From Branchipolynoe longqiensis (taxonomy: Eukaryota > Annelida > Polychaeta > Phyllodocida > Polynoidae): a stretch of DNA of 64,000 bases. The notes below the pieces were generated by a model. It ran no database searches. It was given only the letters and a program-made list of their open reading frames with translations, and was not told the DNA's origin. The number at the start of each line of letters is the position of its first letter. Within the stretch, counting starts at the first letter, position 1. Location of the stretch: contig CM059187.1 in the NCBI GenBank assembly GCA_030323885.1, positions 137,240,415 through 137,304,414 on the forward strand, read 5' to 3'. Shown here piece by piece: positions 48,140 to 49,157 of the stretch. Made by a program: the position numbers and the translations under genes.

Positions 48140-49075
48140 AGTAGCGGTTTTACGGTACCTAATGCCACCATACCATAGGACCAGCCATGCATATTAGTGG
48201 CGGTTTTACAGTACCCAATGCCTACATACTATAGGACCAACTGTGCATATAGTGGAGGTTTAACGATACCCAACGCCTACATACCATAGGACCAGCTGTG
48301 TATATAGTGGCCGTTTTACAGTACCTAACGCCTACATACCATAGGACCAGCTGTGCATATAGTGGCAGTTTTACAGTACCTAACGCCTACATACCATAGG
48401 ACCAGATGTGCATATAGTGGCAGTTTTACAGTACCTAACGCCTACATACCATAGGACCAGCTGTGCATATAGTGGCAGTTTTACAGTACCTAACGCCTAC
48501 ATACCATAGGACCAGCTGTGCATATAGTGGCAGTTTTACAGTACCTAACGCCTACATACCATAGGACCAGATGTGCATATAGTGGCAGTTTTACAGTACC
48601 TAACGCCTACATACCATAGGACCAGATGTGCATATAGTGGCAGTTTTACAGTACCTAACGCCTACAAACCATAGGACCCGCTATGCATATAGTGGTGGTT
48701 TTACAGTAACTAACGCCTACATACCATAGGACCAGCTGTGCATATAGTGGCAGTTTTACAGTTCCAAATGCCTACATACCATAGGACCAGCTGTGAATAT
48801 AGTGGCAGTTTTACAGTTCCCAATGCCTACATACCACAGGACCAACCGTGCATATGGTGGCGGTTTTACAGTTTCCAATGCCTACATACGATAGGACCAG
48901 CCGTGCATATTAGTGGTGGTTTTACAGTACCCAATGCCTACATACCACAGGACCAGCCGTGCATATAGTGGCGGTTTTACGGTACCCAACACATACATAC
49001 TATAGGACCAGCTGTGCATATAGTGGCAGTTTACAGTTCCCAATGCCTACATACCATAGGACCAGCCGTGGATGG
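48140..49075 (-). repeat. 55-bp minisatellite seeded on the donor of the catalytic-Ser exon (about 17 copies)
   Basis: In gene orientation the unit is AGCTGGTCCTATGGTATGTA, GGCGTTAGGTACTGTAAAAC, TGCCACTATATGCAC. The exon ends CGGCTGGTCCTATG/GTATGTAGGC, so the array begins exactly at the boundary and reproduces the codons for W-S-Y plus the donor in nearly every unit. Confidence 0.96.
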
Positions 49076-49157
49076 CGACCCTGCTCAAGTCGACGAAGTC
49101 CACCTGGGAGGCGAACCACAAGAGGCCTTCTACCTGGTCGGCAATCTCCACCGTGCC
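49055..49157 (-). CDS. DPP8/9-like peptidase, exon carrying the catalytic serine
   Basis: Exon of 103 nt: acceptor CATTGCAG, 34 codons reading GTVEIADQVEGLLWFASQVD and FVDLSRVAIHGWSY, then one base of the next Gly codon, donor TATG/GTATGT. GWSYGG is the DPP nucleophile elbow; the catalytic Ser codon is TCC at 49059-49061. The segment matches DPP9 (QVEIEDQVEGL...IDLSRVAIHGWSYGG). Its donor is immediately followed in the intron by about 17 tandem units (48140-49075) that repeat the last ~13 exon bases and the donor. No exon upstream of this one (for example the GGPHVQ or IDGRGS part) was recognised in 49158-64000, so the gene is partial here and its 5' end lies outside the window. Confidence 0.94.

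What the first reader, a model, noticed from the sequence alone, without database searches (positions are those of the whole stretch)
48140..49157. Minisatellite grown from the 5' splice site of the DPP8/9 catalytic-serine exon
The exon at 49055-49157 ends CGGCTGGTCCTATG with donor GTATGTAGGC. The intron then continues as about 17 units of ~55 bp, nearly every one carrying AGCTGGTCCTATGGTATGTA GGC, i.e. the W-S-Y codons and the donor. Every unit is a potential decoy 5' splice site in register with the last exon bases, so array length could affect splicing or add in-frame or out-of-frame sequence at the active site. Since the spliceosome has many equivalent donors, selection on the true one may be relaxed, which could allow the intron boundary to slide.
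Basis: partly seen in the sequence, partly recalled or inferred. Interest (0 to 1): 0.88.

Follow-up and report, generated by a model that had tools for sequence, protein, structure and literature searches.

The report
Decoy splice-site minisatellite in DPP8/9-like gene
In what is likely an annelid worm's genome, a 17-copy repeat runs out of the end of the exon that carries the predicted active-site serine of a DPP8/9-like protease, so one real splice site is followed by 16 look-alikes that are predicted to be ignored, because using any of them would cut the protein short at a stop codon.

Summary
On the minus strand, exon 49157-49055 (…VAIHGWSY|G) ends CCTATG|GTATGT and 17 units of 54-56 bp follow. 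All 17 keep GT; 11 of the 16 decoys pair with U1 as well as the true donor. The DNA search finds the array nowhere else in the 1.85 Gb genome. Two proposed consequences fail: every decoy brings an in-frame TAG (GWSYGM*), so nothing can be added in frame at the active site, and I saw no sign of boundary sliding. Such boundary arrays are known from amphioxus as "mirages"; this host groups with annelids. The case is not unique: the same gene has a second donor array (43239-43590) and an acceptor array just outside the window. Of 79 kinesin and myosin exons taken without regard to repeats, 9 have a duplicated boundary. Repeat copies occur at 4 of 62 donors, at 6-9 of 48-62 places inside the introns and at 0 of 62 places 36-72 nt into the exon. 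So junctions are weak barriers, not hot spots. It is a new member of a known kind and a natural test of splice-site choice; no RNA was available.

The parts
49055..49157 (-). Exon of the DPP8/9-like gene with the GWSY|G catalytic-serine motif; true donor right after 49055
   Evidence: PDB DPP8/DPP9 match; borders and open spliced frame
48127..49070 (-). Donor-spanning minisatellite, 17 units of 54-56 bp, 16 decoy donors after the true one
   Evidence: only place found in the genome
49046..49054 (-). In-frame G-M-stop (GTATGTAG) directly after the true donor
   Evidence: translation across the donor
45191..45240 (-). Next exon (GGYLSLMGLAQRPDVFK); the intron with the array is 45241-49054
43583..43725 (-). 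Exon VAIAGAPVTSWMLYDTGYTERYM...DKLPSE, followed by a second donor array
43239..43590 (-). Second donor-spanning minisatellite, unit about 50 bp, true donor plus 6 decoys; in-frame TGA at once after the true donor
34776..34887 (-). Exon with the aspartate motif (GLIDENVHF); no junction copies
31650..31742 (-). Last coding exon with the histidine motif (NERHGIR) and stop codon

Best explanation
This is an exon-boundary minisatellite (a 'mirage'): 17 copies of a 54-56 bp unit, each with the last bases of the exon and a GT donor, that likely arose by tandem duplication across the 5' splice site and would be spliced out whole, because only the exon-proximal donor keeps the reading frame open. Shown: the anatomy, one locus, the stop codon after the true donor, decoys that mostly pair with U1 as well as the true site, and recurrence at other junctions of this gene and genome. 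Inferred: the founding duplication took about 20 nt of exon and 35 nt of intron; the array then grew and was evened out in its middle by unequal exchange or slippage; the spliceosome picks the copy attached to the full exon (exon definition, exonic enhancers), so decoys are close to neutral. A duplication that spans a junction leaves one good copy against the exon and so need not change the protein, which lets the repeats that fill this genome's introns cross junctions until they are stopped some 24-36 nt into the exon.
For: Array runs into the exon with 17 of 20 matching bases. Single place found in the genome. Splicing at the first donor gives an open frame through the last six exons to one stop; any decoy meets TAG. 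Across six donor arrays 46 of 47 decoys keep GT and 36 of 47 pair with U1 at least as well as the true donor (11 of 16 here). Middle units u06-u13 differ from the consensus by 0-1 (one by 5), the first six and last three by 4-13, as expected for growth in the middle. Recurrence: second donor array and an acceptor array in the same gene (3 of 25 junctions tested); 9 of 79 kinesin/myosin exons. Copies at 4 of 62 donors against 6-9 of 48-62 inside introns and 0 of 62 at 36-72 nt into exons.
Against: No RNA: use of the first donor alone is not shown. Junctions are not favoured: myosin set 2 of 47 junctions against 237 of 940 intron windows, so nothing special about splice sites drives growth. Decoy strength may only reflect evening-out of units: donor columns are not unusually conserved (15 of 47 nine-column windows are as conserved or more). 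Nearest-site preference known from duplicated 5' splice sites (recalled, not from a call) would favour a decoy, so the choice of the first donor needs an explanation that I infer. Early decoys would give exons of only 157-212 nt, which exon definition by size alone does not forbid.
Confidence: 0.85

Rival explanations
1. Splicing dimmer: a share of transcripts uses decoy donors, gains the in-frame TAG and is degraded, so array length tunes how much DPP8/9-like enzyme is made.
For: 11 of 16 decoys as strong by U1 pairing as the true donor; in-frame stop in the first unit in the five donor arrays checked; nearest-site preference (recalled).
Against: No RNA. Stops soon after a donor are common because donor sequences often contain them. 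The amphioxus papers report no aberrant splicing at mirages. Donor columns show no special conservation.
Confidence: 0.1
2. Dispersed satellite or transposon-borne repeat that happens to resemble the exon end.
For: The window holds many other arrays, some with relatives elsewhere.
Against: Only one place found in the genome; the exon part is coding sequence conserved in 120 of 120 listed homologues, so the exon is the likely source.
Confidence: 0.02
3. Assembly artefact: false or miscounted copies.
For: Tandem arrays are hard to assemble and no reads could be examined.
Against: Units differ from each other, with diverged edges; different units recur at other loci; the contig is 160 Mb long. 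The exact number 17 stays unproven.
Confidence: 0.03

Closest known systems
Amphioxus 'mirages' (Adh3, globins BflGb6 and BflGb9, TnC, PGBD5); PMC3087553 and PMC3902484, passages and one section read
   Same: Tandem repeats that span an exon/intron boundary, at donors or acceptors, with splice signals in many units; evened-out middle and diverged edges; unit lengths in the same range (Adh3 10-72 bp, globins 150-160 bp).
   Different: The host groups with annelids, not with Branchiostoma. Three such arrays in one gene and 9 of 79 sampled exons give a frequency that the passages I read do not give. Splicing and length variation were tested in amphioxus, not here.
Intron gain by tandem duplication of AG/GT sites (Rogers model, as cited in PMC3087553)
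   Same: Duplication across a splice signal.
   Different: No new intron is seen here: the array is about 0.9 kb of a 3.8 kb intron between two coding exons. Whether the intron is old was not tested.
Intron-1 minisatellites of earthworm metallothionein genes (PMC12783039, passages read)
   Same: Large minisatellite arrays in annelid introns.
   Different: The passages describe arrays inside intron 1 with monomers of about 180 bp and do not say that units span a splice site.

Membership tests
Mirage (exon/intron-boundary minisatellite) | Tandem units span the exon/intron boundary | tested here: met
   Array 48127-49070 overlaps exon 49157-49055; 17 of 20 exon-end bases match the unit
Mirage (exon/intron-boundary minisatellite) | Units carry splice signals | tested here: met
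   GT in 17 of 17 units; 11 of 16 decoys as strong by U1 pairing
Mirage (exon/intron-boundary minisatellite) | Regular splicing is not disturbed | not testable with these tools
   No RNA; only that the first donor gives an open frame
Mirage (exon/intron-boundary minisatellite) | Length varies between haplotypes or cells | not testable with these tools
   One assembly, one place found
Mirage (exon/intron-boundary minisatellite) | Host is a cephalochordate (where the name was given; not a structural criterion) | tested here: not met
   Gene tree: with Lamellibrachia 91/72 and Owenia 93/97; union with Branchiostoma p-AU 0.031, with molluscs 0.084, not rejected
DPP8/9 (S9B prolyl dipeptidase) | Sequence match and Ser, Asp, His motifs (motif roles recalled) | tested here: met
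   PDB matches; best homologues are named DPP9; GWSYGG, GLIDENVHF, NERHGIR in the spliced frame
DPP8/9 (S9B prolyl dipeptidase) | Enzyme activity | not testable with these tools
   None
Dispersed satellite or transposon-borne repeat | Copies at other loci | tested here: not met
   One match in 1.85 Gb

The most novel reading that the evidence does not exclude
In this genome boundary minisatellites stand at several percent of splice junctions and act as length-variable dimmers: the more equal decoys follow a donor, the more transcripts take one, meet the built-in stop and decay, so repeat instability sets enzyme levels such as that of DPP8/9 between individuals or even between cells.
Probability: 0.1. 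Interest if true: 0.85.

Novelty: new member of a known kind. Interest (0 to 1): 0.5.

Why it matters
Boundary arrays were described in amphioxus; here they appear in a genome that groups with annelids, at 9 of 79 sampled exons, and 36 of 47 decoy donors examined pair with U1 at least as well as the true one. If the sample holds, the genome offers many natural tests of how a spliceosome picks one of many equal sites. In donor arrays the needed site is the farthest from the next exon; in acceptor arrays it is the last to be transcribed. Nearest-site choice would fail in both and first-come choice in the second, whereas choice by exon context would explain both. RNA reads could check that directly.

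Tried and rejected
Considered and rejected: a dispersed repeat (one place found); in-frame additions or boundary sliding (in-frame TAG); selection that keeps decoy donors (donor columns no more conserved than 15 of 47 nine-column windows); enrichment of arrays at junctions, which three arrays in one gene had suggested to me, but the kinesin and myosin samples show junction rates below intron rates.

Led nowhere: COX1 for naming the species (no match); PF00326 survey (did not complete); genome searches with the DPP protein and with the second array (did not complete), so it is not known whether the gene has a second copy or whether array 2 is single; Cañestro 2002 (not held). Not used: Rfam, structure prediction, fold search, viral and plasmid collections. 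Other window arrays near exons of this gene (34999-36672, 31377-31637) do not span a splice site.

Rows and their handling: L046 was dropped as a duplicate of L045. The 30 myosin loci are those the tool cut out of 68 matches. The 50 kinesin exons come from 124 matches, taken from the upper part of the E-value list with some rows skipped. In one search, 11 of 50 kinesin donors were left out for want of a called site, L090's donor and L074's acceptor were placed by hand (without L090 the donor count is 3 of 61), and of the 30 myosin loci 23 donors and 24 acceptors were kept. L074 was a false acceptor call. L075 is a 320-bp duplication around a tRNA-like insert and is counted among the 9. In one search three of the 25 DPP junctions were slightly misplaced (donor 65091 by 3 nt, acceptor 45240 by 1 nt, and one acceptor near 66204 not at an AG). 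Several cases among the 9 were judged by eye from the printed sequence.

Full report
Observation. Exon 49157-49055 (minus strand) encodes GTVEIADQVEGLLWFASQVDFVDLSRVAIHGWSY|G and matches PDB DPP8/9 entries. It ends CCTATG|GTATGTAGGC. A 17-unit array, 48127-49070, begins inside the exon. All 17 units have GT at the donor place; 10 of 17 carry the exact 19-mer GGTCCTATGGTATGTAGGC. The exon tail agrees with the unit consensus at 13 of 14 and 17 of 20 positions. A genome search found the array in one place only in the 1.85 Gb assembly.

Gene. Further exons lie at 45240-45191, 43725-43583, 34887-34776 and 31742-31650, the last with the stop codon. With 120 kb of adjoining DNA there are 15 exon matches, up to about 91.8 kb in window numbering. 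Splicing the last six exons at the borders named here gives one open frame to a single stop, which supports 49055 as the working donor. GWSYGG is in 120 of 120 listed homologues.

What decoy use would do. Reading on past the true donor gives G-M-stop, so each of the 16 decoys would end the protein right after the serine motif. The second donor array of the gene gives TGA at once, and the three kinesin donor arrays checked also hold a stop in the first unit (L052 was not checked). Five of five is only suggestive, because donor sequences themselves often contain stops.

Decoy strength. Pairing energies with the U1 end (its sequence recalled) were computed for six donor arrays: 46 of 47 decoys keep GT and 36 of 47 are at least as strong as the true donor; in the array in question 11 of 16. 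This may only reflect evening-out of units: donor columns are not unusually conserved.

How it grew. Units u06 to u13 differ from the consensus by 0 or 1 (one by 5), while the first six and the last three differ by 4 to 13. That fits growth in the middle with old edges, as PMC3087553 reports for a globin mirage.

Not alone in the gene. A second donor array stands at 43239-43590: the exon ends CCGTCAGA|GTGAGT and six decoys follow. An acceptor array of 162 bp units stands at 65100-65570 in the same numbering, just outside the window: two upstream copies hold the acceptor and most of the exon but run into stop codons. Three of 25 junctions tested have copies.

Not alone in the genome. I took exons by family search, not by repeats: 29 myosin exons (30 of 68 matches were cut out, one duplicate dropped) and 50 of 124 kinesin matches. 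Duplicated donors, the true one counted: L052 (3 copies, one decoy without GT), L072 (6), L090 (11), L093 (at least 9), and L075 (2, around a tRNA-like insert). Duplicated acceptors: L039 (17 or more), L053 (5), L038, L045 and L072 (2 each). That is 9 of 79 exons: 6 of 50 kinesin and 3 of 29 myosin. With equal 24-nt windows, donors give 4 of 62 at the junction, 6 to 9 of 48-62 at 24-120 nt into the intron, 1 of 62 at 24 nt into the exon and 0 of 62 at 36 to 72 nt into it. Acceptors give 2 of 64 at the junction and 4 of 64 six bases into the intron, 5 to 7 of 53-64 at 24-120 nt into the intron, 2 of 64 at 36 nt into the exon and 0 of 64 at 48 to 72 nt. So junctions are weak barriers, not hot spots. 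The myosin set alone, with a longer search range, gave 2 of 47 junctions against 237 of 940 intron windows, and 0 of 92 windows inside exons; kinesin controls 40-50 nt into introns gave 16 of 156.

Host. The best homologue is from Lamellibrachia (52%), with Lingula and Owenia also at 52% and Branchiostoma at 48-49%, among the 120 listed of 836 hits. In a tree of 42 rows the query pairs with Lamellibrachia (91/72) and then Owenia (93/97). Uniting it with Branchiostoma is rejected at p-AU 0.031, with molluscs not (0.084). The query protein is an approximate join of exon matches and this is one gene, so: likely an annelid, and not an amphioxus.

Known kind. PMC3087553 (passages) and PMC3902484 (passage and section 17) describe tandem duplications of exon/intron boundaries in amphioxus, named mirages, at both boundary types, and say that splicing is not disturbed; length variation and somatic instability are cited there for Adh3. 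The original 2002 paper was not held. Searches for the like elsewhere listed no paper whose title, abstract start or passages that I saw report splice-site-spanning arrays in another animal; one ascidian paper with the word mirages uses it only in a reference title. PMC12783039 (passages) reports intron-1 minisatellites in earthworm metallothionein genes. The library holds open-licence papers only, so this is a limited statement.

How it most likely works. A duplication across a junction leaves an intact copy against the exon and so is tolerated; one inside an exon is not. In donor arrays the needed site is the farthest from the next exon; in acceptor arrays it is the last to be transcribed. 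Nearest-site preference (recalled) would fail in both, first-come in the second; recognition of the whole exon would choose rightly in both. This step is inferred, and RNA would test it.

Scores. Interest 0.5.

Noticed in passing
L007, gene numbering 65100-65570 (1.1-1.6 kb beyond the window's end): Acceptor array of 162 bp units: two upstream copies of the acceptor plus most of the preceding DPP8/9-like exon, cut off before a donor and ending in stop codons.
   Followed up: yes
window 38278-42005, minus strand: ORFs that look by eye like a DIRS-type retroelement (reverse transcriptase and tyrosine recombinase) inside the intron between exons 43583 and 34887; a related ORF at 21875-23029. No domain search was run.
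   Followed up: no
window 17560-17745, 20235-20341, 26184-26266, 28682-28764; L024 331-521; gene numbering 168994-169876: A dispersed short repeat of about 40 bp (GTATACGCTGATAGTGCTGC...) in tandem at several loci, some in reverse orientation.
   Followed up: no
L036, from about 1690 to 3078: A 30-bp repeat, about 46 copies, starts some 14 nt after a myosin donor; the frame of the exon stays open into it (open frame 556 aa), so retention would add a repetitive tail.
   Followed up: partly
L075: A kinesin exon end and its donor are duplicated 320 bp apart around a tRNA-like insert, perhaps a SINE.
   Followed up: partly
window 29649-30290: 58-bp repeat about 1.4 kb beyond the stop codon; many units hold CTTACAG or CTTCCAG, like acceptors, on the plus strand.
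   Followed up: no
G000:C10:50432622-50432813 and 50437435-50437626 (L045, L046): Two myosin exon matches of equal score and range 4.8 kb apart on one strand, perhaps a tandem exon duplication.
   Followed up: no
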